The notes beneath the pieces are model-generated. The model was not told where the DNA came from. It saw only the letters and a list, made by a program, of their open reading frames with translations, and searched no databases. The position numbers and the translations under genes are program-made. Below, piece after piece: positions 1 through 20,483 of a DNA stretch of 23,831 bases. The stretch is from a virus. The stretch is from IMG/VR virus record IMGVR_UViG_3300009503_000707, positions 1 to 23,831 of that record; one strand, 5' to 3'. The stretch's first letter is position 1. Every line of letters starts with the position of its first letter.

Positions 1-284
1 ACAACATGCATTTTGCCAAGCAGCCCCTGCGTGCTTAGCTCATCGCAGAATTGGCTCACCGCCCAAGTGGTGTTACTACTCGGCCTATTCGTCGAGCCTG
101 CTGTCGCGTCAATCCGCGCAAGCCAGTTTGTCACCCATGCATTCGTTGTCCAGCCACCGCCGCCTCCACCGCCCGCCGGCTGTCGCCCGATGAGCGAGAG
201 AAACCCCGGGTCGCGCAGGCTGTTGGGCTGCGCACCGGCGCAAATGCAAAACGCAAAAAATGCCAGAAAAATCAGTGTTCTCAT
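1..284 (-). CDS. Exported fibre/LamG-like phage protein, partial (left edge)
   Basis: The first 94 codons of a leftward gene run off the left edge of the window. The start is an ATG with a GGAG ribosome site 7 bases upstream, and it overlaps the TGA of the upstream fibre gene by ATGA, so the two are probably translated together. Residues 1-19 form a signal peptide (hydrophobic core, then CAGAQ as a likely cleavage site). A run of seven glycines follows at 38-44, then a region rich in Asn, Thr and Trp. The pattern around residues 53-94 (NWLARIDA, then VSQFCDELSTQGLLGKMHV) resembles the short helical region that precedes LamG/concanavalin domains in many phage tail-appendage proteins. That match is from memory of the family and is an inference. 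The C-terminal, probably larger, part is outside the window. A receptor-binding or virion-surface role is likely but unproven. Confidence 0.6.
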   Translation of the reverse strand, partial: MRTLIFLAFFAFCICAGAQPNSLRDPGFLSLIGRQPAGGGGGGGWTTNAWVTNWLARIDATAGSTNRPSSNTTWAVSQFCDELSTQGLLGKMHV

Positions 285-1642: not shown

Positions 1643-1643
1643 A

Positions 1644-3566: not shown

Positions 3567-3585
3567 GGCTATCTCCAAAAACTGC

Positions 3586-3612
3586 CTTGCCTAACTTTAC
3601 TCAGGCGGCAAG
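3586..3612 (-). terminator. Possible weak terminator or attenuator hairpin
   Basis: CTTGCC (3586-3591) pairs with GGCAAG (3607-3612) over a 15-base loop. Read on the minus strand, the stem is followed three bases later by a run of five T (GCAGTTTTT). It lies in the gap between the small Pro-rich gene and the phosphoesterase gene. The stem is only six pairs, so this may tune read-through rather than stop transcription. Confidence 0.28.
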
Positions 3613-3628
3613 CCACGTCAACATTTTA

Positions 3629-4102
3629 TTATGTGGCCTTTTTAGGCCGGCCAACTTTGACTTTTACGCCGCGGCTGATTGGCTCACCGCCTTCGCCAGC
3701 CAGTACCCCCGCAGAGGTTGCAGGGGCGGCCTTTACCACAGCCGCTTCTGCACTTGCCTGTGCCACCGCAGGCTGGGCAGGGGATAACATCACTTGTTGT
3801 TGCGGCGGTTGCGGTTTTGGCGGTGGCCCCCAATGCGGACTTAAATCCACTATTCGCAATTGCGGGATTGATTGGCTGGGCGGGCTTGTCAGTTGTTTTT
3901 TTTTCAATTCATCGTAGATTTCTTTTGAAATCTCGACAACGCCGCCAATATGACGTTTCAAGCAAATCTCAATCGTTTTCAGTTCAGGCGCGTCATCGGC
4001 CAGTTCGAGTATCCCGTATTCATCAGGTATTGGGGTAAAGACAATTTGATTGCCTTCATGAAATATGGTTGTTTTGATATTCGATTTTTTAAAGTATCGC
4101 AT
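3629..4102 (-). CDS. Small structural-operon protein with Pro/Ala-rich tail
   Basis: I do not recognise this 157-residue protein. The N-terminal half (residues 1-75) is mixed alpha/beta: it starts MRYFKKSN, then has a strand-like FTPIPDEYGILEL and a helix ending in EIYDELKKKQ. The second half is low in complexity and probably disordered, with PPKPQPPQQQ and then an Ala-rich stretch. It ends in a basic VKVGRPKKAT tail that looks like a single AT-hook, which could touch DNA or simply be charged. The ATG at 4102 has an AAGG site six bases upstream and was chosen over an upstream ATG at 4153 that would overlap the preceding gene by 22 bases. Its place just after the capsid and decoration-like genes suggests a head completion or connector role, but that is inference only. 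Confidence 0.6.
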   Translation of the reverse strand: MRYFKKSNIKTTIFHEGNQIVFTPIPDEYGILELADDAPELKTIEICLKRHIGGVVEISKEIYDELKKKQLTSPPSQSIPQLRIVDLSPHWGPPPKPQPPQQQVMLSPAQPAVAQASAEAAVVKAAPATSAGVLAGEGGEPISRGVKVKVGRPKKAT

Positions 4103-4131
4103 ATCAAACCTTTGTGTTTCAGGTTTAGCTC

Positions 4132-4614
4132 TTAAGGCCAGTAGCCAACGCAAACATTGGACGGATAGACTGTCGCCCCGCTCGCGTTTGAAATGGCGGT
4201 CAAAGCCAAATACTTGGCCCCACCGAAATTAGTAAATGGCAGCGTGGCGAAAAGGTTCTGGACATTGGTTGTCTTGTCGCTTGTAGAAACCGCTAGGCTG
4301 ATTGGCTGGTTCGACGTCCAGTAAACATTGTCTGCTGACACATCAAACTTGAGCGTCAAGCTTACATTGGTCGCTGCGGCCATCTTCAACCGGCACACCA
4401 CCCCCAGCGGGCTGCTTCGTGGCGCCGCAAATGCAGCACCAACAACATTTGATTGCTGGCTCGCCCCAACTGAGCTTGGCAGATAGGCGCTGCCAAAGTT
4501 CTTGTAACCATAGTTGTCGGGGCCAGGTACAGAAATACTAGGCCCCGTCCAAGTAGCAGCGCACAAAATCAGTACGCTGGCAGCCAATCCAATTGCAATT
4601 GCGATTTTCTTCAT
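4132..4614 (-). CDS. Exported decoration-like protein after the capsid gene
   Basis: The protein has 160 residues and no family I can name with certainty. It begins with a clear Sec signal peptide (MKKIAIAIGLAASVLILCAA), and the mature part is Ser/Thr/Asn-rich and beta-type. The segment LTLKFDVSADNVYWTSN is similar in style to beta-sandwich phage decoration or appendage proteins. Translation starts at an ATG with a strong GGAGG site. It lies 20 bases downstream of the major capsid gene in the same operon, the usual place for a capsid decoration protein. A signal peptide does not fit simple capsid binding in the cytoplasm, so it may instead be exported. Either the hydrophobic N-terminus is a membrane or particle anchor, or the protein acts outside the cell. 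Coding: sure. Function: uncertain. Confidence 0.62.
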   Translation of the reverse strand: MKKIAIAIGLAASVLILCAATWTGPSISVPGPDNYGYKNFGSAYLPSSVGASQQSNVVGAAFAAPRSSPLGVVCRLKMAAATNVSLTLKFDVSADNVYWTSNQPISLAVSTSDKTTNVQNLFATLPFTNFGGAKYLALTAISNASGATVYPSNVCVGYWP

Positions 4615-4634
4615 TTCATCCTCCGTTAAATTGA

Positions 4635-6344
4635 TTAGTTGTCGTCGTAATCGCCGGCTTCCTGAGTGTGGTCAGGTACTTCGTCGGCAATATTCTCGCC
4701 AATCCAATCGCCAGCCGGGCACTCGGCTATTTGCGTGTGCGTTGTGGACATCAAAGTCGTTGTCTTGGTCGGGACACGCATCACGCAGCGATATGAATTA
4801 TCAACCGCAGCAAGCGTTTGCAAATCACCGGTCTTGTGGACAACTCTGTTGCTGCCCAGAATGCCGGTGTAATTCTTGCTCCAGTCAATAATCCAAATCC
4901 TGTTGCCGAAGTTTTTCCAAGCCGCGTTGCCGGTCGCCGCGGCGCGGGCCTCGCATTCATCCCGATAATCGTCAAAGAACCTGTCGGTGATGATGTTGAG
5001 GTAACAGTTCGGGTAATCCAGATAGAACCGTTTGAACGTGAAGCCAAACGGCGATTTCTGCTCCCCACTGCTCAGGTCAATGTTCATCCGCAGCAGGCTC
5101 TTGCTCTTGGCCTCATAGTAATTGATGAGGGCCTGCTGGAACAGGAGCGCATAGTTCGACGGCATGAACACGTCAACCTCGTTGCTCTTGTTGCCGGTAT
5201 CGTTGCGGATACGCAGCAACCGATAGAGCATCTTCTGGAAGCTCGGTATGCTGAGCCGTTGCCCTTGGAAATCACGCACACGCTTGCATTGCAACCATTG
5301 CTCATACCAACCGATTGAGTTGGCCTTGTAACCAACGCAACGGCTGCCGTCAATTGCCGCAGTGGTGATTTGCTGCAGGCTGCTGACGGTGTTGATGTCC
5401 TGATTCGGCAACGGCTGGTTGAAGAACATGGTATTGACAAACCGCCTGTAGAAATCTTCACCAGCCTGCCGGTTATACTCGACTACAGGCAGATGGAAGT
5501 AATTCGCATACAGCGGGTTATTGGCCAGAACCAACCCCAACCATTCCTCGTATTGCTCGTCAATCGCCAGAGCATCACGAACAGTTTCAACCCAGAACGG
5601 TTGCTCGCTGTGGCTAATCAAGCCAGGCGGCTGAGCACACCAGCTCTCAAAATCGGATACGTTGGCTGTACCACGATAGACAATGGCGTTCACCGGCCCA
5701 TTTGTCCATGTATGACTCGATACTGAAACCTTGCGTGAAGCCGGCAAATTGGAAGGCCCGGCAGTCAAAGCCAACCGGATGGTTTGAGTGCCGGAATTCA
5801 CAGTTGAATCAACAACTGTCCACGCCGCCCGCACAAGTGAACTGCCATCGTCGCCGACAGACTCAGTCCAGACACGCTCGCCAACATTGAACCAGCGGGT
5901 GTCCACCGGTATGCCTGTGCGGCTGGAAACGTTTATGTCCCAGTAATCGGCGCCGCTAACCTGCACACCATGCCCACCTGCCCCCTCCCAGTAATTGTTG
6001 TTGATGGGGCCTTTGCGCCGGCCCAAAATGTATGGGCGAATGCGAATAAGCCCGTTGCTCATGATTTCGGTGCTTATCCGTTTCGACAAGTCCACTTTGT
6101 TGGCCAAAAGAAACTTGGTCAACGGGGTTTGCTGCGCCTGGCAGGCGTTCAATTCAAGTTGATGCATGAACAACGCGCCCATGATGCGATATTTCCCATC
6201 CGAACTCAGGAACATATCGTCCAAATCGGTGGGCGAAGGTACAATTGCATTGCACGTTGTTACACTGCTTGCGCGGGCAATGTCGGTCGTCAGTGCTGGT
6301 ATGCACGCCTGAAAAATATTTGTTATATCGCTTTGTGCTGGCAT
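4635..6344 (-). CDS. Major capsid protein (probable)
   Basis: At 569 residues this is the best candidate for the major head protein. It directly follows the scaffold-like gene and has the size and composition of a large HK97-type capsid protein. The N-terminal part is mainly helical (KYRIMGALFMHQLEL and LTKFLLANKVDLSKRI). Residues about 130-230 are Trp-, Ser-, Thr- and Val-rich, with a beta pattern that suggests an inserted domain. The remainder is alpha/beta, with a C-terminal acidic tail (EVPDHTQEAGDYDDN). A conserved-looking stretch at DVFMPSNYALLFQQALINYY resembles the spine and P-domain region of podophage-type capsid proteins. The ATG has an AAAGGA site seven bases upstream. No single diagnostic motif exists for this family, so the call rests mainly on position, length and the scaffold neighbour. 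Confidence 0.72.
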   Translation of the reverse strand: MPAQSDITNIFQACIPALTTDIARASSVTTCNAIVPSPTDLDDMFLSSDGKYRIMGALFMHQLELNACQAQQTPLTKFLLANKVDLSKRISTEIMSNGLIRIRPYILGRRKGPINNNYWEGAGGHGVQVSGADYWDINVSSRTGIPVDTRWFNVGERVWTESVGDDGSSLVRAAWTVVDSTVNSGTQTIRLALTAGPSNLPASRKVSVSSHTWTNGPVNAIVYRGTANVSDFESWCAQPPGLISHSEQPFWVETVRDALAIDEQYEEWLGLVLANNPLYANYFHLPVVEYNRQAGEDFYRRFVNTMFFNQPLPNQDINTVSSLQQITTAAIDGSRCVGYKANSIGWYEQWLQCKRVRDFQGQRLSIPSFQKMLYRLLRIRNDTGNKSNEVDVFMPSNYALLFQQALINYYEAKSKSLLRMNIDLSSGEQKSPFGFTFKRFYLDYPNCYLNIITDRFFDDYRDECEARAAATGNAAWKNFGNRIWIIDWSKNYTGILGSNRVVHKTGDLQTLAAVDNSYRCVMRVPTKTTTLMSTTHTQIAECPAGDWIGENIADEVPDHTQEAGDYDDN

Positions 6345-6467
6345 AGCTCAATCCTTTCTACAACCAATTTAACACCGCAACTTAATAATGCCAGCTAGTT
6401 AAATCGGCATCTAATGAATATTATGTAATTGAGCTGTAATCCATTATAAGATAATGGGTTTCTTATT
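6345..6467. other. Spacer between scaffold and capsid genes with a hairpin
   Basis: This is the longest gap in the structural operon. It contains CCATTAT (6441-6447), a three-base loop AAG, and ATAATGG (6451-6457), which is a perfect 7-pair hairpin extendable to ten pairs with one G-T pair. It starts a few bases after the scaffold stop. On the minus strand no T-run follows, so it does not look like a strong terminator. It may be an RNA-processing or mRNA-stability element, or part of a capsid-gene promoter region (the stem contains TATAAT on the minus strand). The rest is AT-rich with no ORF. Confidence 0.4.
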
Positions 6468-7922
6468 TTATGTGATGGCGCCTGATGGCGGTAATCCGTT
6501 CAAAAGAGCATTCAAAAGCTTGCTCCCAGGCCCCTTTAACCCGCCTGATTGAGTGGTTGTTTTTGTGGCTACTGGCGCGGCGGCGGTTGATGGTGAAAGC
6601 GGCTTGCTAGCCGCCGGCGGCGGCATTGGCGGCGGGCTATTCAGCGCGATTTCCGCCGCTTTATCGGCCTTGCCGGGCTTTTGCAGGCCGTATTTGCGCT
6701 CGACAATTTTTTGGATGCGCTCCTGTTCTTGTTGGGCTTTTTCTTTCGCTTCTTCGAGAATGAGGTGATTGTTGATTGCAATAAGCGTTTGCGGGTCAAG
6801 TGTCCATCGCTTTGCTTTTTCCGCATCAGACAACTTGTTATACTGGGTAACAGAAATAAATTGCCGGCCTTGGCCATCTTTTTGCTCTTCTTCAGGCAGG
6901 CTGGTAATGTATTTTTCGATGTTGGCAACCGCCGATACAACGGCATCAGTTTGCCGTTCATCAGCCAGCCCGTTGATGAACGATTCAACTGTCGCCGCAA
7001 ACACAGCCGCTGCCTGAGCCGCGGATTCAATTATCTCGGCTGATTCAGGCGCAAGTTCGGTCAGTTTATCCCTTGAGAATTTCCCGTCCTTGAACACTTC
7101 ATCAAAGGCATCTTTGCCGACCATTTCATTCACAACATCAGCCGCGGCGCTTAAGGCGGTTTGCATTATCTTCGGCTGCACTTCTTTGAGCTTGGCTTGC
7201 TTAACTGTTTGCTCAAGCTCCTGAACTTTTGAAGCTATTGGCTTCAATTTCAACTGTTCCTGTGCCTTTTCGAAATCAGCTTGCGAATAGTTGAAGCCGA
7301 TTTTCTGACGCAGATTCGCGGCGTGTTCATTCCATGCCTCTGCCATTGCCGCGTTGCGTTCCTCATCGCTGGCAAAATTTTCGGGCGGGTTCGCCTTTTC
7401 CCACTTGTCGCGGAATGTATCCGCATCTTTTTCAAGGGTAGCCTTGAATTTCAGCGCCTTTTGCGGGTAATCCTTGTACTTGTCTGGGTACAAGTTGGCC
7501 ATTTCAACAATGACCTCATAAGCCTGCCGGTCTTCCTCAGGCAGTTTATCCGGCGGAATAATCTCTTCTTCAGCCGGCTGCGCTGGGGGCGGTGTTTTCG
7601 TTTTTTCATCTTTATCTTTCAGCGCCTTGGCAACCCCCCGCGCCGCCGCCTCAGCAATTTTCTCCGGGTCAATCTCCGGATAATCCTTTGCCTTTTTAAT
7701 GCGCTTGGCAGGTGCCGGGGGCGGCGTTGGTTCTTTTGGTTTGTCATCCGCCTGGGACGGTTCCGCCGGTTGGCCAAGCAAAGTGGAAAGCACCTTGCCG
7801 GCTACCTCAGGCGGTACAGTCTCCGGTTTTTCTGCCGATTGATTCTGTTGCTTGACAACTTGTTGGTTGTCGGTGTCTTGTTCGACAGTTTGATTTTGGA
7901 TTGTGTCTTTGTCGTTTTCCAT
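6468..7922 (-). CDS. Scaffold/prohead core-like protein
   Basis: This 484-residue, highly charged protein has low complexity at both ends. The N-terminal 120 residues are rich in Gln, Pro, Glu and Lys. The middle (about 120-400) is a string of long charged helices with predicted coiled-coil character (for example KPIASKVQELEQTVKQAKLK). The C-terminus is Pro/Ala/Ser-rich (PPPMPPPAASKPLSPSTAAA) and ends in a short hydrophobic helix, KLLNALLNGLPPSGAIT, of the sort that scaffold proteins use to bind capsid protein. It sits between the portal and major capsid genes, where scaffolds usually lie. The ATG follows the upstream stop by three bases and has no clear ribosome site, so translation is probably coupled. 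No protease motif was seen. Scaffold function is inferred from position and composition. Confidence 0.7.
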   Translation of the reverse strand: MENDKDTIQNQTVEQDTDNQQVVKQQNQSAEKPETVPPEVAGKVLSTLLGQPAEPSQADDKPKEPTPPPAPAKRIKKAKDYPEIDPEKIAEAAARGVAKALKDKDEKTKTPPPAQPAEEEIIPPDKLPEEDRQAYEVIVEMANLYPDKYKDYPQKALKFKATLEKDADTFRDKWEKANPPENFASDEERNAAMAEAWNEHAANLRQKIGFNYSQADFEKAQEQLKLKPIASKVQELEQTVKQAKLKEVQPKIMQTALSAAADVVNEMVGKDAFDEVFKDGKFSRDKLTELAPESAEIIESAAQAAAVFAATVESFINGLADERQTDAVVSAVANIEKYITSLPEEEQKDGQGRQFISVTQYNKLSDAEKAKRWTLDPQTLIAINNHLILEEAKEKAQQEQERIQKIVERKYGLQKPGKADKAAEIALNSPPPMPPPAASKPLSPSTAAAPVATKTTTQSGGLKGPGSKLLNALLNGLPPSGAIT

Positions 7923-7925
7923 AGG

Positions 7926-8219
7926 TTAGATTTGCACTTTGTTCAAGGTTACGGTTTTCTTGTCCAGCTCAGACCAAATCATGTCCAATCTCTCCTGACA
8001 CGTCTTCCATTCAAGGGCAGCGCGTGCATTGGAATTGGCGGCATCCATTATTTTCGGATACGCAAGGAGAGCATCCGCCAAATCACAGCCAGCGAGAATT
8101 TTGTGGTAATCAGCGCGATTTTCAATCACGCGGCGTAGGATTTCCATTCCTGGGTGCTGGAAAAGCGCCAGTAAGTTTTGAATTTCCACCTCAGTTAGTG
8201 GTGTTTTTTCAATTACCAT
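7926..8219 (-). CDS. Small helical protein between portal and scaffold
   Basis: This is a 97-residue protein, helical throughout, with no signal peptide or membrane segment. It begins MVIEKTPLTEVEIQNLLALF and contains a conserved-looking Trp region, ALEWKTCQERLDMIW, near the C-terminus. I do not recognise a named family; small proteins of this type are common between portal and scaffold genes of podovirus-like phages. The ATG at 8219 was chosen over a TTG three codons earlier; neither has a strong ribosome site. It ends three bases before the scaffold gene, so the two are likely co-translated. It may take part in head assembly, but the sequence itself does not show how. Confidence 0.6.
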   Translation of the reverse strand: MVIEKTPLTEVEIQNLLALFQHPGMEILRRVIENRADYHKILAGCDLADALLAYPKIMDAANSNARAALEWKTCQERLDMIWSELDKKTVTLNKVQI

Positions 8220-8264
8220 ATAGTTCAATCTACATTATCCATCACTTGAGTTCAAATCTTTTTT

Positions 8265-10703
8265 TCATTGAGGCGGCATCGGCATTTGAACCATGGGCGC
8301 CTCAGGCGGACTGGCCGGGGCATTGGATGCCGCGGTGATTATGGTGCCAAGGTTTTTGACCGCCTGCGCAATTTGATTGATTTGCTCGGCTTGCGCTTGG
8401 TCAATCTGATTGTTCTGTTGGGCCAAAGCACCCAGCGCCTTTTCTATTTCACCAACCTTGGCGGCTATCTGGCTAATGGCGGCTGATTGCTGTTGAATGG
8501 CGGGGGCAGTTTGTTGCGCCGCCATTTGCGCGGCGCCCTGGGCAATTTGCTGGGACATCTGCTGGAGTTGCCCCGCCAACATCTGCATTTGCGCCAACGT
8601 GCCGGCTTCAGGCGAAATTTTAATCTCAAAATCGTCAGGCGCCCCCATCATGCGGGCTATGCGATTGAACATAGCAACAAACCATTCAACGCCAATCTTC
8701 TGAGCAAGCTCAGGCTGGCCAACAACCGCTTGAATAGTTTGAAGCATAACCTGCGCAGTTTGCGGACTGGCCAGCCGCGTATTGCCTTCGCGGGACGACA
8801 GGAAACCGCCAACAGACAATTTCCGTTTATCGCCGCTAACCACAATCTTCCCCCTGTAGGGAGGCCATGTGAATTTGAAACCCAACGCTTCCCTCAACAT
8901 ATCGAGCTTGGGCAACGGGACGGCATTCACTTCCGCGGCGAATTCTTCGTCCATGAATTCAAGGGATGCCTCATAAAGCTGCCGTTTCATGGCCGCTATG
9001 GCGTCGTAAATGAAAGTTTCGATGTACTGAACGCGCCCGCTTGTGTTTTGGTTGATAATCCGAACCTCCTCCGCCGTTTGAATATGCCCCGCAGTTGTTC
9101 CCAGTTCCTGGGCGCTCATGTTCAGGGCGCGCTCCATGATGTTGAAAACGGTGTTGAGAATTGAAATCAATTGGGTGGTGTCTTGGTATTGAAAATTGAT
9201 TGGCTGGAACATCTCCGCCGGATTAAGCCCCTCCGCCTGCTGGCGCATCGAATCATACGGAAACCAAATGCAGGCTGTTGCATCCTTGTGTTTGGCTTCT
9301 ATTTCGCGGATTTGTGATTCTGAAACCTGCCGGACATCGTACCGGATTACCTTCATCAGGTTTTGCCGAATGGTGATTATGTGCTGCATCAGAATGTTCC
9401 CCACCAAATCCTGCCAGGGCAAACATTCAAGCGCAAAGGACGGGTTCAACGAAAGGCCATCATCAGAATCGCCACTCCAATAGACCAACGGGCAATACGG
9501 TAATGGTTCAGCCCAAATTACTGTGTCGTCATTGGCAACAACAAACCTAATCCAAACGGGTGTTGAAACATCAGCAAGCCCCCAATCCTTGGGGATAACT
9601 TTCATGAACAAATTGCTCACGAAAACCGCCTTGTCCTTTTCGTTTGTCGTGTATCGCTGAGATTCAATTTGCCGATTGTTAGTCCAGCCGCCGACAAAAT
9701 CGGGTGGCGAAATCACGCAGGGATACATCTCCTGAAAATACCCGTGACTTATCTGCGGGTCGAACCAGTTTTTCCCGTACGTTACCTTGTCAGTGTTGTA
9801 GTATGGCTCCCTTGTAATGCTGCCATACTTCATGATGTCCCAATAACAAGCCCACTCACAGCCTGTATCAGAATTGATTGTTGCCGGACGATAGGTTTTG
9901 TCGAAAGCACATCTTGTTGGGTGCGGGATGTTGTAGCGTAATCCTTCTTTCTTGGTGTAGGTTTTGCCTTCGTCATCAAAATCTTCCTCGTAATACCATG
10001 CTTCAGCGGGGAACGTGATGCACCACCCGTATTTGATGGCGTGCAGAATAGCCGATTTAACAACCGCCTTGAGGCCGCAATTTTCAACCATCTGGCGGCC
10101 AATCAAGTTGGTCAGAATCTCGCCAATCAATTCAAATGCTTCAGTTGTGTGAACGGGTTGGTAAACAAAGAACGGGTCATTATCCAAATCATTGAAAATC
10201 TTGCCTGCACGCGCCGTGACATACGCCTTTACAATCGGAACGAAAACCCTGAAAAAAGTGTCCGTGTTCAGGATGTATTCCTTTTCTTTTTTATCATTCA
10301 CGGTGATGGTGAAGAGAGTTTCTTCTGATAATCCCCATATTTTCAATTGCTGCCGGACGTCCTCAGGATTTTTGGCTGACGATATGATTTTGCGGATTAT
10401 AGTTGGCGTGATTTGGCTGAATGGAACATTCCATGCTTCATCTATGGCTCCGTAAACCCGCCAATCCTTCAGGCTATCCATTCGCGCCTGGGCAATCCGG
10501 TCAACAATGAGGTCGTAAAACTCCTTTTGCTTGCCTTCAAGTTGCTCCCTGTCCTTGGTGAAGATTTGCTTCAGCTTATCGCTGGTGATTGATTTGTAGG
10601 CGCGCTTGCCGCCAGTAGGCTCCTTTCTGGTGATACCAAGCGCATCACCAATGGCTTGAACGAAACTTGCGCCTATCTCTTTTGAACTAGTATTTTTCGC
10701 CAT
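8265..10703 (-). CDS. Portal protein (head-to-tail connector)
   Basis: This 812-residue protein is a probable portal, the ring through which DNA enters and leaves the head. The central part has features typical of large podovirus-type portals: aromatic beta segments (for example WAEPLPYCPLVYWSGD), long helices around QDLVGNILMQHIITIRQNLM, and a helical clip/crown stretch around AEEVRIINQNTSGRVQYIE. The last roughly 105 residues (about 706-812) are Gln/Ala-rich and coiled-coil-like, and end in a Pro/Met-rich tail, consistent with a barrel or disordered extension. The ATG at 10703 has an AAGGAA site four bases upstream; a longer version from 10778 would start at a poor codon inside the upstream gene. 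It overlaps the upstream small gene by 17 bases. The size favours a podovirus-like or large connector over the 400-500 residue siphovirus type. Confidence 0.82.
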   Translation of the reverse strand: MAKNTSSKEIGASFVQAIGDALGITRKEPTGGKRAYKSITSDKLKQIFTKDREQLEGKQKEFYDLIVDRIAQARMDSLKDWRVYGAIDEAWNVPFSQITPTIIRKIISSAKNPEDVRQQLKIWGLSEETLFTITVNDKKEKEYILNTDTFFRVFVPIVKAYVTARAGKIFNDLDNDPFFVYQPVHTTEAFELIGEILTNLIGRQMVENCGLKAVVKSAILHAIKYGWCITFPAEAWYYEEDFDDEGKTYTKKEGLRYNIPHPTRCAFDKTYRPATINSDTGCEWACYWDIMKYGSITREPYYNTDKVTYGKNWFDPQISHGYFQEMYPCVISPPDFVGGWTNNRQIESQRYTTNEKDKAVFVSNLFMKVIPKDWGLADVSTPVWIRFVVANDDTVIWAEPLPYCPLVYWSGDSDDGLSLNPSFALECLPWQDLVGNILMQHIITIRQNLMKVIRYDVRQVSESQIREIEAKHKDATACIWFPYDSMRQQAEGLNPAEMFQPINFQYQDTTQLISILNTVFNIMERALNMSAQELGTTAGHIQTAEEVRIINQNTSGRVQYIETFIYDAIAAMKRQLYEASLEFMDEEFAAEVNAVPLPKLDMLREALGFKFTWPPYRGKIVVSGDKRKLSVGGFLSSREGNTRLASPQTAQVMLQTIQAVVGQPELAQKIGVEWFVAMFNRIARMMGAPDDFEIKISPEAGTLAQMQMLAGQLQQMSQQIAQGAAQMAAQQTAPAIQQQSAAISQIAAKVGEIEKALGALAQQNNQIDQAQAEQINQIAQAVKNLGTIITAASNAPASPPEAPMVQMPMPPQ

Positions 10704-11067
10704 TGGATTCCTTTTCCTTTGCCTCTTCCTCTTCTTCCTTTGTTTCGGTCTCTTCCGATGCCTCTTCGACACTATCACCGACTATTGAAAGAACATCAAA
10801 ACAGATTTGGCTATCGGTATTGGATTGGCCTCTTAATTTGCGCCTGCTGACTTCCGTGCACCTTGCCTTGATTGTCATTTCAATCACTTCACCCAACTTG
10901 GGTTCGCCAAATTTCTTCACGAAATTGTCGGCTGCATCGAAATGCAAATCCAAACGCGGGTAATATGGCTCTGATTTTTTCTTTTTCCTTGGCTCCATTT
11001 CCTCATTAAAAACAAGGCCGCTGGGCGGTGTGTAACTCAAATCCAATTCGTCATTCGTTTCTTTCAT
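10687..11067 (-). CDS. Small acidic protein at head of structural operon
   Basis: A 126-residue protein in three parts. The N-terminus is polar and ends in a basic RKKKK patch. The centre (about 40-95) is a beta-type domain (YPRLDLHF, LGEVIEMTIKARCTEVSRRK, ICFDVLSIVG). The C-terminus is a run of Glu and Lys (EETETKEEEEEAKEKE) and is surely disordered. The beta domain resembles small proteins often found next to portal genes in metagenomic phages, but I know no assigned function. The ATG at 11067 has a GAGG site five bases upstream and is preferred to an ATG five codons earlier. It is the first gene of the leftward structural operon and overlaps the portal start by 17 bases. Confidence 0.62.
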   Translation of the reverse strand: MKETNDELDLSYTPPSGLVFNEEMEPRKKKKSEPYYPRLDLHFDAADNFVKKFGEPKLGEVIEMTIKARCTEVSRRKLRGQSNTDSQICFDVLSIVGDSVEEASEETETKEEEEEAKEKESNGEKY

Positions 11068-14992: not shown

Positions 14993-15364
14993 ATGAAACC
15001 GTTGTCGAATTTAACTGGCTTTGAATTGACCCGACTGGAAATACTTGAAGAACAATTCAGGCTCTCCGATGATGAAGTCGCCCTTCTGGTAAAATCACTG
15101 AACAACGCGGGCGTCAAAACAAGGCTGATTAGCATTCTAACCGGTGTAAAGCAGGAGGCGCTTGTGGGGCTGGGCATGACCACAAAAAGCAGGCTTCAAA
15201 CGGCACAGAAGCGAAGCATTTGGTTTTTGTGGTGCGCAGTGTTTCAGCCTGACCTTTTAAATGAACTTTGGGAGATAATCACATGGGGCCGCAACCGTGC
15301 CATGACCGAAACTGAGTTGCAAAAACTTTGCAATAATTGCGAAAAATTGTCGTTGCAAAAATAA
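14993..15364 (+). CDS. Possible DNA-binding regulator, first early gene
   Basis: A 123-residue protein with ATG preceded by AAGG at seven bases. It is helical throughout. The middle part (residues about 27-70) reads like a helix-turn-helix: DDEVALLVKSLNNAGVKTR, then LISILTGVKQEAL, then a basic segment TKSRLQTAQKR. This has a faint likeness to the FlhC-type pattern (acquired R and TG motif), which I note but do not claim. The C-terminal part has two tryptophans and a C-x2-C (LQKLCNNCEKL). It heads the rightward early operon, the place where phages often encode a regulator, and it sits divergently to the lysis operon. DNA binding is an inference from the shape of the sequence and the location. 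Confidence 0.5.
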   Translation: MKPLSNLTGFELTRLEILEEQFRLSDDEVALLVKSLNNAGVKTRLISILTGVKQEALVGLGMTTKSRLQTAQKRSIWFLWCAVFQPDLLNELWEIITWGRNRAMTETELQKLCNNCEKLSLQK

Positions 15365-15402
15365 AGGATAGCGGTAGGCTGCCACTGAATTGCGATAAAA
15401 TT

Positions 15403-16500
15403 ATGAACTGGCAAAAAGAAATGAGCAAGTTTAAGGGGGAGCTTCTCATCGAAACCGCAAACATCAAACCAATGTGCATCAAGATTGGTTTGTTTGGCGA
15501 AATTGGCTCCGGTAAATCAACAAGCGCCGCGATTACAGCCATTGCACTTGCGGATGAAAAAAGTCCAATCGGCTTCATTGACGGCGAAGCGTCAAGGGGG
15601 CCTATTGCCGTGGATTTGGCCTGCGAATTGGCGGCCAATTATTACGGCAAACCCAAGGATTCGTTCAAGAGCCGATTCAAATTCATTCACATCGGGCCGC
15701 CCTTCCATCCGTTGCGTGTTGTTGCTGCCGGCAATCTTTTGGTCGAATCAGGTTGCAGCGTCATAATTTATGACATATTGACGCAGGCATGGGATTCAGC
15801 GGGGGGCTACCTCGACTTGAAGGAAGAAAAGATTGATGAGATGACCGGCGGGCGCGAAGAACTTCGCGACCGTTACCTTCAAGCAGCGGCCGCGCATGTA
15901 AAACCATTCACACACACCAAACTGGTTCATCACGTTGAGCAGTTGGGAGTGAATGCCGTTTTGGTTTTTCAAGCGAAACGTAAATGGAATCCGACGACCA
16001 AAAAGTTGTCGGATTACGATACCCCGATTCAGGAAAGTGGCATAACGCGAACGGCTATTGCGGTGGGGCGCGTTTATGCGAAGGACGAAAACGGATTTGC
16101 GCAGGGGGGCTTTTGCCAGTTCGTGGGGGTTCCTGGCTGCACCAAATACACCCACCCTGCGCTATTAAAACTTTTGCCGAACGACGAACAATTGTCGTTC
16201 AAGCATATTGAAGCCGTGAAGAAATGGGTTCAAAACCCCAATTTCGATGTTGCTCAGGAAAAACCCGCCAGCACTCCCCAAGTTCAGCCTGAATCACCCG
16301 TAATGAACGATGAAAAGAAGCAGTTGATGGCCAAGCTTTGGAAGATGTGTGCAAATATTCGGGGGCCGGAGAAAAACTGGCTGAAAGTGGAGGAGTTCTT
16401 GGTGAAGAACAAAATCACCGATAAAAAGGTGGTGAATTTGACAGTTGAAGAATTGAAAGTTGTAATTGATAAAACCGACATCATTTTAAACGAAAACTAA
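15403..16500 (+). CDS. Sak4-like RecA-fold ATPase (recombination)
   Basis: A 365-residue ATPase of the phage AAA_24/Sak4 type. Walker A is GEIGSGKST at residues 32-40 and Walker B is SVIIYD with Asp124. A following beta strand, VLVFQAKRK (about 200), has the position of a RecA-type sensor. Such proteins act as single-strand annealing or recombination ATPases and usually pair with an exonuclease, as here (the PD-(D/E)XK gene one base downstream). The core ends near residue 285. A charged linker follows, then a small C-terminal helical domain (about 305-365) with WKMCANIRG and LKVEEFLVKNK. ATG 15403 was chosen because it leaves a complete core; ATG 15421 is an alternative, and the longer TTG-started version is unlikely. 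The ribosome site is weak. Confidence 0.78.
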   Translation: MNWQKEMSKFKGELLIETANIKPMCIKIGLFGEIGSGKSTSAAITAIALADEKSPIGFIDGEASRGPIAVDLACELAANYYGKPKDSFKSRFKFIHIGPPFHPLRVVAAGNLLVESGCSVIIYDILTQAWDSAGGYLDLKEEKIDEMTGGREELRDRYLQAAAAHVKPFTHTKLVHHVEQLGVNAVLVFQAKRKWNPTTKKLSDYDTPIQESGITRTAIAVGRVYAKDENGFAQGGFCQFVGVPGCTKYTHPALLKLLPNDEQLSFKHIEAVKKWVQNPNFDVAQEKPASTPQVQPESPVMNDEKKQLMAKLWKMCANIRGPEKNWLKVEEFLVKNKITDKKVVNLTVEELKVVIDKTDIILNEN

Positions 16501-16501
16501 A

Positions 16502-17536
16502 ATGGAAAACGAAAGACCAAATCCATTCGTAAAAGCCCGTATTGTCGGGCGCAATGTTGAAACGGCCAAGTATCTTGCCTTTGGCAACAAGCATCGCAAG
16601 GGCACAAGGCGGTTTGTAATGAGCCGCACGGAGTTGATGAAATTCTGGCAATGCCCTGCGAAATGGCTGAAAAGCCAACCGCCAGAGCCAACCAAAAGCC
16701 AAGCATACGGCACCCAAATTGATACCGCATGGTTTCATGGCAAAAACGCTTTTTTCATCGCGCCGGCAAAGTATGTTGATTCCAAAACAAGCGAAGAAAA
16801 GGAGTGGGATTGGCGCTCAAAAGAACGCGCTGCATTGCGTGACAAGGCTTTGGCTGAAGGCAAAATCCCGCTCAAAGCCGATGAATGGGCCGAAATTGAA
16901 AAGGCGCTGGCCGCCCTGCACGCAGATAAAGACATCAGGCAATTGCGCCGCGAATCCAATTGCCAGGTCATGATTGTGGGCACTTATCATGATAAAAACA
17001 CGGGCATCAACGTGCCCGTCAAAACCTTGATTGACCTCGCGCCGCGCAACAGTTCAAGGTACAAAAACAGTCTCGCTGATTTAAAAACAACAAGCTTCGC
17101 AAGGCTGGATTACTGGCAACGGGAGATTTTCAAATACAATTACCATGTTCAAGCCGCCATGGAGTTGGACATGTGGAACGCGGCGACCGGCCAGGAGCGC
17201 GATTCATTTCTGCATGTGATTCAGGAAAACACTCCGCCATATCAAACGGCCAAGCGGTTATTATCCGCCGAATTCATTCTGATGGGTTGGGACATTTACG
17301 TGTCGGCGCTTTCTCTTTATTGCCTGTGCCTGAAAACCAACGACTGGCCAGACTACGATTTGGGTTGCCAGGTTTTGAATGGCTGGACGCTTGTTCAACC
17401 CGTATTAGAGCCGGCCAACTGGCATTACGAAAAGCAATGCGTTGCCTATTCAAAGTGGCTTTCAATTTTAAACCAAATCAAAAACGTGGAAAATGATTTG
17501 GGCATCGCTGAAACATCTGATGACGTACCTGTATGA
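16502..17536 (+). CDS. PD-(D/E)XK exonuclease (recombination, exoVIII-like)
   Basis: A 344-residue protein with the marks of a phage PD-(D/E)XK exonuclease. SRTELMKFWQCPAKW (41-55) opens the nuclease, and the GTQID motif at 70-74 follows. The catalytic acidic residue is D178 in TLIDLAPR. D193 and K195 lie in LADLKTT, the D-x-K motif, and YHVQAAM at 214-220 carries the usual Gln after the active site. These features match the DUF3799/exodeoxyribonuclease VIII-like group that resects duplex ends. It would produce single strands for the ATPase just upstream to anneal. The ATG is one base after the upstream stop and has no ribosome site, so coupling is likely. It ends with ATGA overlap into the next gene. 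The His usual in the first motif is replaced by Asp74. Confidence 0.76.
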   Translation: MENERPNPFVKARIVGRNVETAKYLAFGNKHRKGTRRFVMSRTELMKFWQCPAKWLKSQPPEPTKSQAYGTQIDTAWFHGKNAFFIAPAKYVDSKTSEEKEWDWRSKERAALRDKALAEGKIPLKADEWAEIEKALAALHADKDIRQLRRESNCQVMIVGTYHDKNTGINVPVKTLIDLAPRNSSRYKNSLADLKTTSFARLDYWQREIFKYNYHVQAAMELDMWNAATGQERDSFLHVIQENTPPYQTAKRLLSAEFILMGWDIYVSALSLYCLCLKTNDWPDYDLGCQVLNGWTLVQPVLEPANWHYEKQCVAYSKWLSILNQIKNVENDLGIAETSDDVPV

Positions 17537-18138
17537 AAACAGACGAAAGCTTGATGACAATTTCATTAAACACCGCCAAAAAACTTGAGGAGTTGCGGGA
17601 ATTGGCCGAGCGAATGTTGAGGGTCATGGATTATTACGCTTGGATTGCCGAAAAGCCCGGCGAAATAGCCCATGCCCTAGATATTTTAAAAGAGAAAGAG
17701 AAGGTTGACAAATATCTGGCAGAAGCCGGCGAAATTCTCGAAAAATACCGCAACATTGAATTGACAGGATTCAAGGTTCTGAAAAGGAACAAATTCGGCG
17801 CTCTTATATCCTGCCATGTGCCGCCTGAACAAGGCGGGTGCATTTATTCAGTAGGAAAGATTGTTTATCCGGATGAAGGCTGTGGGCCTTTGAGTGTTTT
17901 CGCAACAATCAGGGCGGCAGCTTTTTACTCGTACAGGATTGAAGGGACAACGGTTTGGTCTTGCAAATTCAAACCATCCCCCATCAACAGGGTGTGGACG
18001 AAACAATTGCCAACCTGCCTTTATGATTGTTTGCCATGCGAGACGGCTCTGGCTGATTGGGTCATGATAACTGAGGAGGTTTCTCCAGATTTGATTGCCA
18101 GAATAATGGAAAACCAATTTAAGATTGATGCACGTTGA
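17533..18138 (+). CDS. Paralogue family member A with helical N-terminus
   Basis: The first of five tandem paralogues, 201 residues. Residues 1 to about 75 are a helical, coiled-coil-like extension (KKLEELRELAERMLRVMD, VDKYLAEAGEILEKYR). The family core (about 78-195) starts at GFKVLKR. It continues with GGCIYSVGKI, the signature GCGPLSVF, an alanine-rich helix, CKFKPSP, VW, and finally ALADWVMITEEVSPD. The family is not one I can name, although similar 'GYKVV ... GPL.VF' proteins occur in metagenomic phages. Two features recur in all members: the CGPL-VF motif and a final A(D)-V-LTEEVS(D/P)D helix. Its ATG overlaps the exonuclease stop (ATGA). Some cysteines may bind metal, but they are not spaced like a zinc finger. 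Function unknown. Confidence 0.65.
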   Translation: MKTDESLMTISLNTAKKLEELRELAERMLRVMDYYAWIAEKPGEIAHALDILKEKEKVDKYLAEAGEILEKYRNIELTGFKVLKRNKFGALISCHVPPEQGGCIYSVGKIVYPDEGCGPLSVFATIRAAAFYSYRIEGTTVWSCKFKPSPINRVWTKQLPTCLYDCLPCETALADWVMITEEVSPDLIARIMENQFKIDAR

Positions 18139-18536
18139 AATTGAAAAAGCATTCAACAACGCTACAACATGAAAAGAATGCCGACTGGGTTGACGGTTAT
18201 AAAGTGGTGCGCATTTTCTGGGATGGCAGAATGGCTTCGTCAGCCGTTAATAGATTCCTGGGCGGCATAATTTATCAAGAGGGCACCATTATCGTCCCCA
18301 AGGAGGGTTGCGGGCCAATTTGTGTTTTCAAAAGGTTGAAGGACGCCCTGCGCTTCAAAACGCAGCCCGAAGAAATTATCATGCGATGCAAATTTTTGCC
18401 GTCGAAAAAGAAATCCGTATGGGTCAAAGGCGACGCCTGGTGTATAAAACAGCGCCTTTGTGAATTGGCAAGAGGAACCGTGCTTGCTGACGCGGTCAAG
18501 CTTTTAGGAAAGGTGAGAAAAAAAATTAAAAAATAA
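18135..18536 (+). CDS. Paralogue family member B (TTG start likely)
   Basis: The second paralogue, about 133 residues. It has the core without the long helical extension: DGYKVVRIFWDG, GGIIYQEGTI, EGCGPICVF, MRCKFLPSKKKSVW and GTVLADAVKLLGKV, ending in a Lys-rich tail. No in-frame ATG precedes the core. The best start is a TTG whose TTGA overlaps the stop of member A, in the way ATGA does elsewhere in this operon; a second TTG six bases on is possible. Either this is a genuine TTG start or a frameshift separates it from an ATG in another frame at 18169. The last 15 residues are rich in lysine where other members have the EVSDDEI helix, so the C-terminus looks degraded or replaced. Confidence 0.58.
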   Translation: MKLKKHSTTLQHEKNADWVDGYKVVRIFWDGRMASSAVNRFLGGIIYQEGTIIVPKEGCGPICVFKRLKDALRFKTQPEEIIMRCKFLPSKKKSVWVKGDAWCIKQRLCELARGTVLADAVKLLGKVRKKIKK

Positions 18537-18550
18537 AGGAGGAAAATAAA

Positions 18551-19090
18551 ATGAATACAATATTGAATAACGAAAACCACTGGCGCCTGATGTGTCTAGA
18601 ACGAATAGCTGCATTAGAGACGCTACCAATAAATACTCTGAGCAAAGCAAAGACTGACCTTTGCATTACCCGTAAAGCAATGGATAGGGTTTCCAACATC
18701 CTGCAGTATTATTATAACCTGTGGATTGATGGGTATAAGGTTGTGCGCAAGCTCGATAATGGGAAACTAGTCTCATCGGAAATCAAAGAGGCTCTCGCAA
18801 TGCGCACCTACAAAATACATGAAATCACGGAGCAGCACCCCAACTATGGGCCGTTTACGGTATTTACTACATTGAAGGCGGCGGCGTGCTATGCTTATGG
18901 CAATCCCGCACTGCATGTCTTCACTTGCCGATATCGCATATCAGCCGCGACGGCTGTGTGGATTCAAGACGGGCCGTCAACCGAGCTAGCGCGGCTCTCG
19001 AAATGGACTGCGCTGGCAAGAGAAGTGCAACTCGTGGCCCAGGTATCGCAAGAGGATATTGATAGGGCGCTAAGGGATACCACGATGTGA
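18551..19090 (+). CDS. Paralogue family member C, divergent, with N-terminal extension
   Basis: The third paralogue, 179 residues, with the strongest ribosome site in the window (AAAGGAGG, about 8 bases before ATG). Residues 1 to about 57 are helical (HWRLMCLERIAALETLPI) and unlike the extension of member A. The core starts at DGYKVVRKLDNG and keeps GPFTVF (Cys replaced by Tyr before GP), the Ala-rich helix, CRYRIS, AVW and a final TALAREVQLVAQVSQEDI helix. It is the most divergent member, and its third-base choices (CTA, CTC, GCG, AGA) look less like its neighbours, so it may have come from another phage or evolved faster. It follows member B after a 14-base gap and precedes member D by eight bases. 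Confidence 0.62.
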   Translation: MNTILNNENHWRLMCLERIAALETLPINTLSKAKTDLCITRKAMDRVSNILQYYYNLWIDGYKVVRKLDNGKLVSSEIKEALAMRTYKIHEITEQHPNYGPFTVFTTLKAAACYAYGNPALHVFTCRYRISAATAVWIQDGPSTELARLSKWTALAREVQLVAQVSQEDIDRALRDTTM

Positions 19091-19098
19091 AAGGGGTT

Positions 19099-19482
19099 AT
19101 GACAAAAAGAAAACGCAATTGGAAAGACGGTTACAAGGTGGTTTTGGTTTCAAGGAGCGGCGAATTGCTATCCGCGACCATCGGGAAAGCTGACGGCGGC
19201 TGCGTCACATACTGCCCCGGTGTTGAAACAGTGCCATTGCCGAAATGCGGCCCATTGTGCGTGTTCACCTCATTTGAATACGCGGACAAATTCAGGGGAA
19301 TACCACATCAAATCTGGAGATGTAAATATAAACCAACTCAAAAAACCTGTGTTTGGCTTTCTGATTTATTAACGGCCTTATCCATTGAGGACTTACCGGA
19401 TGGGACTGCCTTGGCTGATGCAGTCGTGCTCACTGAAAAAGTGAGCGACGATGAAATCCAAAAAGCAAAGGAGGAGCTATGA
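19099..19482 (+). CDS. Paralogue family member D
   Basis: The fourth paralogue, 127 residues from ATG 19099. AAGGGG lies just before it, and this start is preferred to an upstream GTG at 19087. It is close to a minimal family core: NWKDGYKVVLVSRSGELL, GGCVTYCPGV, KCGPLCVF, RCKYKPTQKTCVW and GTALADAVVLTEKVSDDEI. It has more cysteines than the other members (GGC, YC, KCGPLC, RC, TCV). It overlaps member E by ATGA, and its final helix ends in KAKEEL. With E it forms the most similar pair of the five, so a recent duplication of D/E is plausible. No signal peptide, membrane helix or known catalytic motif is visible; function unknown. Confidence 0.66.
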   Translation: MTKRKRNWKDGYKVVLVSRSGELLSATIGKADGGCVTYCPGVETVPLPKCGPLCVFTSFEYADKFRGIPHQIWRCKYKPTQKTCVWLSDLLTALSIEDLPDGTALADAVVLTEKVSDDEIQKAKEEL

Positions 19483-19865
19483 ACATATATCCTGAATGGC
19501 GCGACGGATACAAAATAGTGTCCCCGAAACGAGATGGACTATATTCCGACATTCAAAGTGATGGCAGGGGAGGGATAAAATATGAATTGGGCAAAATCAC
19601 CATGCCAAAACAAGATTGTGGGCCACTCTGTGTATTCGCAGAAATGGAGGATTTAGTCAGATACCTTGATGGCAACCCCGTGATATATGGCCGCAGGATT
19701 CACCATTGCAAATTCATCAAATCGCAATTGGAAGCGGTATGGTATAATCCCAATAGAAAAATGCCTTTGCGCGACCTTCCCGCGGGCACAGTGCTGGCTG
19801 ATGCAGTCATATTGACCGAAGAAGTAAGCGACGACGAAATCAAAAAAACAGTGGAAGAAATATGA
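19479..19865 (+). CDS. Paralogue family member E
   Basis: The fifth paralogue, 128 residues, with ATG overlapping the stop of member D and a GGAGGAG site just upstream. The core is complete: EWRDGYKIVSPKRDG, GGIKYELGKI, DCGPLCVFAEMEDLVRYL, HHCKFIKSQLEAVW and LPAGTVLADAVILTEEVSDDEI. The C-terminal 25 residues are nearly the same as in member D. It is followed by the zinc-finger gene, again through an ATGA overlap. The whole block from exonuclease to VRR-NUC therefore forms one translationally coupled chain with two small gaps. The family role is not evident; placement among DNA-processing genes suggests a replication, recombination or host-takeover function, but this is inference. Confidence 0.66.
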   Translation: MNIYPEWRDGYKIVSPKRDGLYSDIQSDGRGGIKYELGKITMPKQDCGPLCVFAEMEDLVRYLDGNPVIYGRRIHHCKFIKSQLEAVWYNPNRKMPLRDLPAGTVLADAVILTEEVSDDEIKKTVEEI

Positions 19866-20065
19866 ACACCGATTATAATTTGCCTGACGGCGTCACCAGC
19901 AGCAACCCAGAATTTTCCAGAGACACAATCTGCCGCTGCCGCATTTGCGGGCGGGCGTTCCGATATGACCCCATGGAGGAAGCCGGCATCTGTGGATGCT
20001 GCCAGCGGCGCGAGGACATTGAGGATGACGTGCCGGACGACGGGCCGAAGGGGCGCGAACCATGA
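19862..20065 (+). CDS. Small zinc-finger protein
   Basis: A 67-residue protein starting with ATGA overlap on member E. It contains CRCRICG, about 16 residues, then CGCCQRR: two pairs of cysteines (C-x2-C type) forming a zinc ribbon. The C-terminus is acidic and Pro-rich (EDIEDDVPDDGPKGREP). There is no other domain. Ribbon proteins of this size are common in phages and often bind nucleic acid or protein, but the sequence does not reveal a specific target. It lies directly before the VRR-NUC nuclease, which overlaps it by ATGA, so the two may work together. Confidence 0.68.
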   Translation: MNTDYNLPDGVTSSNPEFSRDTICRCRICGRAFRYDPMEEAGICGCCQRREDIEDDVPDDGPKGREP

Positions 20066-20430
20066 GGCTTGAGGACATCAAACCAAGTGAATCGGTTAAA
20101 CGCCGCAACCCCGAAATTTTCGGTGTGCAGAAAATGCCGGGAAAACCGACGCGGGAACGTGATTTGCACAATCAGATTGCTGACTACTGCCGCAAAGCTG
20201 GCTGGCTTTTCTTTCACGGCTCGACGGCGCACAGGACGCATCGCACCCTGGGCGAGCCTGACTTTGTGATTTTTCCGGGCCGCGGGCGTGTCCTGCTCAT
20301 CGAATGCAAATCGGCAACCGGCAAACTGCGACCGGAGCAGCAGGCGGTGTTGGCTTATGCGCGCAAAAACGAATATGCGGCCTATGTGGTGCGTTCTTTT
20401 GATGAATTTTTGCAAATTGTTACATTATGA
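20062..20430 (+). CDS. VRR-NUC domain nuclease
   Basis: A 122-residue protein with the VRR-NUC (PD-(D/E)XK) fold. A basic N-terminus leads into helix RERDLHNQIADYCRKAGW (31-48). The motif GEPDFV (64-69) supplies the first catalytic Asp (D67), ECKSATG (81-87) supplies Glu81 and Lys83, and Gln93-Gln94 in LRPEQQ follow. The rest, LAYARKNEYAAYVVRSFDEF, matches the family C-terminus. Such enzymes act on branched or structured DNA and are typical of phage replication/recombination loci. The length is normal for stand-alone family members. Its start overlaps the zinc-finger stop (ATGA). It is the last gene before the regulatory gap and a terminator-like hairpin. Confidence 0.85.
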   Translation: MRLEDIKPSESVKRRNPEIFGVQKMPGKPTRERDLHNQIADYCRKAGWLFFHGSTAHRTHRTLGEPDFVIFPGRGRVLLIECKSATGKLRPEQQAVLAYARKNEYAAYVVRSFDEFLQIVTL

Positions 20431-20457: not shown

Positions 20458-20483
20458 GGCCACGGAACGTCGTGGCCGCTTTT
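20458..20483 (+). terminator. Intrinsic terminator candidate
   Basis: GGCCACG (20458-20464) pairs with CGTGGCC (20471-20477) around the six-base loop GAACGT. A GC and then four T follow (20480-20483). It lies 28 bases after the VRR-NUC stop, so it would end transcription of the first part of the early operon. The T-tract is short, and partial read-through is likely. Confidence 0.45.

What the first reader, a model, noticed from the sequence alone, without database searches (positions are those of the whole stretch)
17533..19865. Tandem array of five paralogous genes of an unrecognised family
Five neighbouring ORFs share the core 'GYKVV - GG.xY - CGPLxVF - CKFxPS - VW - LADAVxLTEEVSDD', with members A and C carrying different helical N-terminal extensions. 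One phage spending about 2.3 kb on five copies suggests selection for diversity, dose or a hetero-complex, such as blocking varied host defences. The family is not one I can name.
Basis: partly seen in the sequence, partly recalled or inferred. Interest (0 to 1): 0.62.

Follow-up and report, generated by a model that had tools for sequence, protein, structure and literature searches.

The report
Tandem phage genes resembling ADP-ribosyltransferases
A bacterial virus carries five side-by-side copies of an undescribed small gene, repeatedly duplicated in several unrelated viruses, whose predicted shape resembles ADP-ribosyltransferase enzymes but lacks their first catalytic residue, suggesting a binding protein made early in infection.

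Summary
Five adjacent plus-strand genes (17533-19865) encode one protein family, 29-42% identical pairwise. They sit in an early-type operon between a RecE-like exonuclease and a VRR-NUC nuclease. No member matches Pfam, NCBIfam or the PDB, and no PHROG is shared between members. Back-translated motifs recovered about 28 more members from uncultured viruses. Six of 17 virus records hold tandem copies, and in five the adjacent copies form supported within-virus clades, so tandem duplication recurred. Two GTDB contigs also carry a member; both have phage genes nearby.

AlphaFold2 models of two members (pLDDT 92 and 87) share one core. Among solved structures, the matches to the core of both models are ADP-ribosyltransferase (ART) folds: BC2332/DUF2441 (Z 5.8) and rifampin ART Arr (Z 4-5). 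Among viral models the matches are DUF7666 domains and, for one model, T4-type RIIB proteins. Z values are modest, and sequence comparison shows no homology to RIIB or DUF7666. The near-invariant lysine of strand 1 falls, by range offset in both models, at Arr's catalytic His19.

Best reading: a new phage family of ART-like fold, probably non-catalytic, acting early as host-takeover or counter-defence binders. The function is inferred. Diversifying selection is not supported (dN/dS 0.20-0.28).

The parts
17533..18138 (+). Copy A (201 aa): N-terminal two-helix extension (residues 4-73) plus core domain (about 77-200)
   Evidence: AlphaFold2 model pLDDT 87.3; its ATG overlaps the upstream exonuclease stop by 4 bp (ATGA)
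18135..18536 (+). Copy B (133 aa), TTG start overlapping A's stop (TTGA); C-terminal helix degenerate
18551..19090 (+). Copy C (179 aa), about 55-aa N-terminal extension plus core; own AGGAGG ribosome-binding site
19087..19482 (+). Copy D (131 aa from GTG 19087 overlapping C's stop, or 127 aa from ATG 19099)
19479..19865 (+). Copy E (128 aa), core only, ATG overlapping D's stop (ATGA)
   Evidence: AlphaFold2 model pLDDT 91.9, pTM 0.85
15337..16500 (+). Upstream operon gene: AAA_24 P-loop ATPase (PHROG 1366); possibly a recombination ATPase
   Evidence: AAA_24 E 1.4e-4, below the curated cut-off; phrog_1366 E 6e-15
16502..17536 (+). Upstream operon gene: exonuclease VIII / RecE-like PD-(D/E)XK (DUF3799)
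   Evidence: phrog_412 E 6e-41
19862..20065 (+). Downstream operon gene, 67 aa with paired CxxC motifs (zinc-ribbon-like by eye)
   Evidence: no Pfam match
20062..20430 (+). Downstream operon gene: VRR-NUC nuclease / resolvase-like
   Evidence: PF08774 E 1e-7
20458..20477 (+). Intrinsic-terminator-like hairpin just after the VRR-NUC gene, probable end of the operon
   Evidence: consensus scan only

Best explanation
The five genes are diverged tandem duplicates of one small phage protein whose core domain has an ADP-ribosyltransferase-like fold, of the kind seen in Arr/DUF2441 among solved structures and in phage DUF7666 and T4 RIIB C-terminal domains among viral models. The domain lacks at least the first catalytic residue of known ARTs: by range offset, a near-invariant lysine stands at the His19 position of Arr. 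I propose that the proteins are pseudo-ARTs: they are made early, together with the phage recombination enzymes, and use the remodelled cleft and added N-terminal helices to bind host targets (proteins, nucleic acid or a nucleotide) for host takeover or counter-defence. Several copies would give several targets or a hetero-oligomer. Shown: the family, the array, recurrent tandem duplication, distribution in phages, genomic setting, and a confident fold for two members. Supported but not proven: ART-like fold. Inferred: loss of catalysis, early expression, binding role and target.
For: Array and family. Further members in viral contigs, with phage genes beside both members from cellular assemblies. 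Recurrent within-phage duplication (five supported clades). Fold: two member models with pLDDT 92 and 87. Core matches in the PDB are ART folds in both models (BC2332 Z 5.8/5.8, Arr 9iaf 4.3/5.4 and 2hw2 3.8/5.0; with model E also MbcT, SRO1, PARP10, RCD1, ParT and ART toxins; only a DNA ligase at Z 2.1 is not ART). Viral models: DUF7666 (E 2e-3 and 8e-4) and, with model E, many RIIB. A DUF7666 phage protein was annotated by its depositors as 'putative ADP-ribosyltransferase' similar to rifampin ART. DUF2441 is in Pfam's ART clan (PMC7955679). The strand-1 lysine (31 of 33) falls at Arr residue 19 by range offset in both models (E 8..128 to 15..121; A 77..201 to 15..132); His19, Tyr49 and Asp84 are needed for Arr activity (PMC13246000). 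Setting: exonuclease or annealing-protein genes nearby in five loci. A DUF7666-like gene directly follows a family member in one virus.
Against: ART matches have Z 4-6, a range where unrelated folds can occur; the plain Foldseek search of the PDB lists no ART among its top 50 and nothing at E <= 0.001. Profile-profile comparison finds no sequence homology to RIIB or DUF7666. The catalytic mapping rests on range offsets for motif I only; no residue-level structural alignment was available. Active-site divergence does not prove lack of enzyme activity. There is no evidence on expression, ligands or targets. Proximity to recombination genes has no background control.
Confidence: 0.42

Rival explanations
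1. The proteins are active but unorthodox ADP-ribosyltransferases (or NAD+/nucleotide-using enzymes) that modify host proteins or nucleic acid early in infection, like T4 Alt/ModA/ModB, with a lysine replacing the usual His/Arg; the copies would have different substrates.
For: ART-like fold; conserved polar and aromatic residues K12, S23, Y35, C77, T104 in 29 or more of 33 members suggest a maintained site; phages do deploy ARTs against host proteins (PMC7824862).
Against: The strand-1 His/Arg position appears to be lysine. Human ART3 (K-L-V), PARP13 (Y-Y-V, listed inactive) and TASOR (L-Y-Q, listed inactive) show that such domains can lose the triad (PMC7955679).
Confidence: 0.2
2. The proteins are accessory or regulatory subunits of the phage recombination machinery (exonuclease VIII, annealing ATPase, VRR-NUC resolvase), in whose operon they lie.
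For: Translationally coupled placement between exonuclease VIII and VRR-NUC; a member lies 9 bp after ERF in L131; Sak4-like or PD-(D/E)XK genes lie within about 4 kb in L122, L124 and L061.
Against: Most other members have no recognised recombination gene adjacent, and L062 lies by HNH endonuclease and head genes. Repeated duplication and divergence are unusual for a dedicated enzyme partner (inference). No background frequency was measured.
Confidence: 0.2
3. The family is a diverged branch of the RIIB-C/DUF7666 domains and does what RIIB does: protect the phage from exclusion or abortive-infection systems such as RexAB.
For: Foldseek hits of model E to many RIIB and DUF7666 proteins at probability 0.9-1.0 and TM about 0.5, of model A to DUF7666; a DUF7666-like gene adjacent in L129; T4 rIIAB protects against RexAB (PMC8594841).
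Against: No sequence-level homology above shuffled controls; the invariant GxH motif of RIIB/DUF7666 is absent; no RIIA partner was noticed in the window; RIIB carries an HTH that these proteins lack.
Confidence: 0.12
4. The ART-like match is a coincidence of beta-sheet arrangement and the family has a separate fold with an unrelated role.
For: Z 4-6 only; Foldseek on the PDB not significant.
Against: The matches to the core in both models are ART folds, and viral-library hits include a protein class independently annotated ART-like.
Confidence: 0.25

Closest known systems
DUF7666 (PF24703), phage and giant-virus domain
   Same: Foldseek E 2e-3 and 8e-4, probability 1.0 with both models; short K-containing first strand; one DUF7666-like gene adjacent to a family member (L129)
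   Different: No member matches PF24703 at E <= 1; profile-profile comparison not above shuffles; invariant CxxGFHxC replaced by C-GPLxVF
T4 RIIB C-terminal domain
   Same: Many RIIB proteins among Foldseek hits of model E; similar order of motifs by eye
   Different: No significant sequence match; RIIB has an N-terminal HTH and the conserved GLH motif; these are stand-alone, tandemly repeated
Arr rifampin ADP-ribosyltransferase (PDB 2hw2, 9iaf)
   Same: Core matched at Z 3.8-5.4 in both models; strand-1 position aligns
   Different: His19 position is Lys in 31 of 33 members; no sequence match; sequences 9-11% identical over the structural alignment
BC2332 / DUF2441 (PDB 2aua), Pfam ART clan
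   Same: Best solved ART-fold match to the core of both models, Z 5.8
   Different: Itself of unknown function; no DUF2441 Pfam hit
Human pseudo-ARTs PARP13, TASOR, LRRC9 (PMC7955679)
   Same: ART-like fold with the catalytic triad replaced, proposed non-catalytic or uncertain roles
   Different: Eukaryotic, multidomain; no sequence relation tested

Membership tests
ADP-ribosyltransferase (ART) superfamily | ART fold of the core domain | tested here: inconclusive
   Leans to met: the core matches in the PDB for two members' models are ARTs, Z 3.8-5.8 for BC2332 and Arr; but Z < 8 and Foldseek PDB not significant
ADP-ribosyltransferase (ART) superfamily | His or Arg of motif I on strand 1 | tested here: not met
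   Near-invariant Lys (31 of 33) falls at Arr residue 19 by range offset in both models; no residue-level alignment available
ADP-ribosyltransferase (ART) superfamily | Tyr/Ser of motif II and Glu/Asp of motif III | tested here: inconclusive
   Invariant F53 sits in the strand expected for motif II; no conserved Glu at the last strand (D108 in 17 of 33); not mapped residue by residue
ADP-ribosyltransferase (ART) superfamily | NAD+-dependent transferase activity | not testable with these tools
   Needs biochemistry
DUF7666 (PF24703) | Match to the family profile above cut-off | tested here: not met
   No hit among 33 members at E <= 1; hhalign not above shuffles
DUF7666 (PF24703) | Same fold in predicted models | tested here: met
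   Foldseek probability 1.00, E 2.3e-3 (E model) and 7.5e-4 (A model) to the PspYZU05 protein; TM normalised by query 0.49 and 0.32
T4 RIIB | N-terminal HTH plus C-terminal domain with CSxGLH motif | tested here: not met
   Motif absent in A4; no HTH Pfam hit; profile comparison not significant
Known anti-phage defence proteins (PADLOC) | Profile match | tested here: not met
   Only single-member matches at E >= 0.012

The most novel reading that the evidence does not exclude
A previously undescribed class of phage host-takeover proteins: ART-fold modules that have abandoned NAD+ chemistry and are repeatedly amplified in tandem as a diversifying set of inhibitors, sharing an ancient fold with the C-terminal domain of T4 RIIB and with DUF7666. 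This would give RIIB, whose mechanism is still poorly understood, a structural class.
Probability: 0.2. Interest if true: 0.75.

Novelty: new variant of a known kind. Interest (0 to 1): 0.47.

Why it matters
If right, it adds an uncatalogued phage protein family to the ART-like fold, shows that such domains are repeatedly duplicated in phage genomes, and links the fold to the long-unexplained RIIB/DUF7666 domains, giving a direct structural hypothesis to test for RIIB. Even without the function, the family (absent from PHROGs, Pfam and NCBIfam and not found among cultured phage records with the members tried) is a target for counter-defence screens.

Tried and rejected
Pfam, PHROGs, NCBIfam and PADLOC scans of the five or of the 33 members: single-member chance hits only. 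PDB sequence search with the A4 profile and with a DUF7666 profile: nothing. tblastn of seven members against 50,697 phage records: none convincing, a few pieces at E about 7. Standard search for related loci with single proteins or alignments found little or nothing; hand-made back-translated patterns worked. About half of the hits are an unrelated conserved ORF with ...PGCGPLxVF... and were excluded by profile score. Homology by profile-profile to RIIB-C or DUF7666 was rejected as unproven: local scores 13.5 and 11.6 against shuffled means 11.1 and 10.7, equalled in 4 and 13 of 40 shuffles; the same test does connect RIIB-C with DUF7666 (20.8, 0 of 40). The extension of copy A matched only generic helical bundles. 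DUF7666 and Arr-ms searches in relatives of the two cellular assemblies found nothing. Diversifying selection: average dN/dS 0.20-0.28 in four duplicate pairs, so rejected at whole-gene level only. Plain Foldseek against the PDB gave mostly kinesins, Rubisco small subunits and tail tubes with E >= 0.3 and TM about 0.2, treated as noise.
Full report
WHAT IS THERE. The window is a 23,831-bp IMG/VR virus fragment. It has a minus-strand arm with a possible portal protein (837 aa, phrog_533 E 0.0036) and a plus-strand terminase, and a plus-strand operon-like region from about 15 kb. There the order is AAA_24 ATPase (15337-16500), exonuclease VIII/RecE-like nuclease (16502-17536), copies A, B, C, D and E (17533-19865), a 67-aa protein with paired CxxC motifs (19862-20065), VRR-NUC nuclease (20062-20430), a terminator-like hairpin (20458-20477), then a DnaD-like and a DnaC-like helicase loader. 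Neighbouring genes overlap by 4 bp (ATGA, TTGA, GTGA) except AAA_24/exonuclease and B/C; C has its own AGGAGG. This is the arrangement of a translationally coupled operon; early expression is inferred from the gene content.

THE FIVE ARE ONE FAMILY. All pairs align at 28.8-42.4% identity (E 1e-14 to 3e-27). A leave-one-out profile of any four finds the fifth at E 4e-23 to 4e-31. Only D and E keep detectable DNA similarity (80% over 64 bp). The mean column identity is 42% with 20 invariant columns.

RELATIVES. Libraries and cultured phages give nothing usable. DNA patterns back-translated from Y-x7-P-x3-C-G-P-L-x-V-F-x5-A found about 28 further members in viral contigs and two GTDB assembly contigs (alignment A4, 33 rows). 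The latter two have phage genes beside the member: endonuclease VII/HNH and head maturation protease (L062), Sak4-like annealing protein and exonuclease (L061). Within the collections searched the family is therefore a phage family.

REPEATED TANDEM DUPLICATION. A search of the whole records finds more than one copy in 9 of 17 virus records (G004 4, G012 4, G009 3, G010 3, and two each in G005, G007, G013, G016, G018). Copies abut or nearly abut in six of them (G004, G007, G009, G010, G012, G016); in G005 and G018 they are about 30 kb apart. In the tree, paralogues of L025, L033, L053 and L036 and two of G004's four form supported within-phage clades. Tandem duplication has therefore happened repeatedly, or gene conversion keeps copies alike. 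For the window's five copies a single clade is neither shown nor rejected (p-AU 0.44). Four duplicate pairs give dN/dS 0.20-0.28, which argues against whole-gene diversifying selection; dS of 1.2-2.6 is near saturation. Two pairs of the 17 records (G011/G015, G008/G014) are near-identical at the gene, and the records were found by a motif, so frequencies are not unbiased.

FOLD. AlphaFold2 with the family alignment gives a confident model of E (pLDDT 91.9, pTM 0.85) and of A (87.3, 0.72). In A the N-terminal extension is two long helices. Plain Foldseek against the PDB shows nothing significant. The VIA-align second look gives 13 rows for E, of which 12 are ART folds: BC2332 (DUF2441) Z 5.8 over 86 residues, Arr 4.3 and 3.8, Arr-2, MbcT, SRO1, PARP10, RCD1, ParT and bacterial ART toxins. 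The exception is a DNA ligase at Z 2.1. For A, most rows are helical bundles matching the extension; those that match the core alone are again BC2332 (Z 5.8) and Arr (5.4, 5.0). DUF2441 belongs to Pfam's ART clan (PMC7955679). In the viral library E matches DUF7666 and many RIIB proteins, and A matches DUF7666. Depositors of Acinetobacter phage fEg-Aba01 annotated a DUF7666-type protein as a putative ADP-ribosyltransferase similar to rifampin ART. I rate ART-like fold at about 0.75.

CATALYTIC RESIDUES. Arr needs His19, Tyr49 and Asp84 (PMC13246000). In both models the first aligned residues put the family's near-invariant strand-1 lysine (31 of 33) at Arr residue 19: E residue 8 to Arr 15, A residue 77 to Arr 15. 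This assumes no gap in the first five aligned residues. Phe53 is invariant in the strand where a motif-II residue is expected, and no acidic residue is invariant near the last strand; these two points are not mapped residue by residue. The conserved set (G10, Y11, K12, S23, Y35, P43, C47, G48, P49, F53, A at 59, C77, W88, T104, A107) shows that the domain is under constraint. Loss of the triad with retention of fold is known for PARP13 and TASOR (PMC7955679), but divergent sites can also hide new chemistry.

RELATION TO DUF7666 AND RIIB. Similar order of motifs and similar models are not homology by sequence: hhalign of A4 against 13 RIIB C-terminal domains or 7 DUF7666 domains is not above shuffled controls, whereas RIIB-C against DUF7666 is. 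The family is therefore not filed under either. One virus has a DUF7666-like gene directly after a family member (L129 898-1557, E 1e-5, just under the curated cut-off).

SETTING. Exonuclease or single-strand-annealing genes lie nearby in five loci: the window, L131 (PD-(D/E)XK, ERF, then the member 9 bp later), L122, L124 and L061. Without a background rate this is suggestive only; it fits early expression or a recombination role.

MECHANISM. I commit to early-made, non-catalytic ART-fold binding modules for host takeover or counter-defence, duplicated to cover more than one target or to form hetero-oligomers (0.42). Shown: family, array, recurrence, phage distribution, setting, a confident fold model. 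Supported: ART-like fold and absence of motif-I His/Arg. Inferred: early timing, binding role, target. Rivals are an unorthodox active ART, a recombination accessory, an RIIB-like anti-exclusion factor, and a chance fold match.

VERDICT. New variant of a known kind (ART-like fold), interest 0.47.

Noticed in passing
window 1644-3578, minus strand: A 644-aa protein with a calcineurin-like metallophosphoesterase domain (PF00149, E 2e-12) lies in the minus-strand arm downstream of the possible portal gene; unusual company and not followed further.
   Followed up: no
window 281-10778, minus strand: Most large genes of the presumed structural arm have no PHROG or Pfam match; the 837-aa protein at 8265-10778 only weakly resembles a portal (E 0.0036). 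The virus appears far from described phages.
   Followed up: partly
L129 898-1557: A DUF7666-like protein with a tail of degenerate repeats (SVWNSVxxSV...) directly follows a family member in the same virus.
   Followed up: partly
L124 6768-7160: A very diverged additional family member (E 9e-5) that lacks the GPLxVF motif lies 1.5 kb after a tandem pair, suggesting decay or further divergence of copies.
   Followed up: no
A5 versus A6 (L097-L117): The C-terminal domain of T4 RIIB and the DUF7666 domain are related by sequence profile (E 3e-4; score 20.8 against at most 15.6 in 40 shuffles). I found no paper on DUF7666 and none stating this link.
   Followed up: partly
Several viral contigs, e.g. 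L021, L035, L041, L043: An unrelated, highly conserved ORF stretch with ...PLPAPGCGPLxVFISLVFA recurs in many viral contigs and mimics the search pattern.
   Followed up: no
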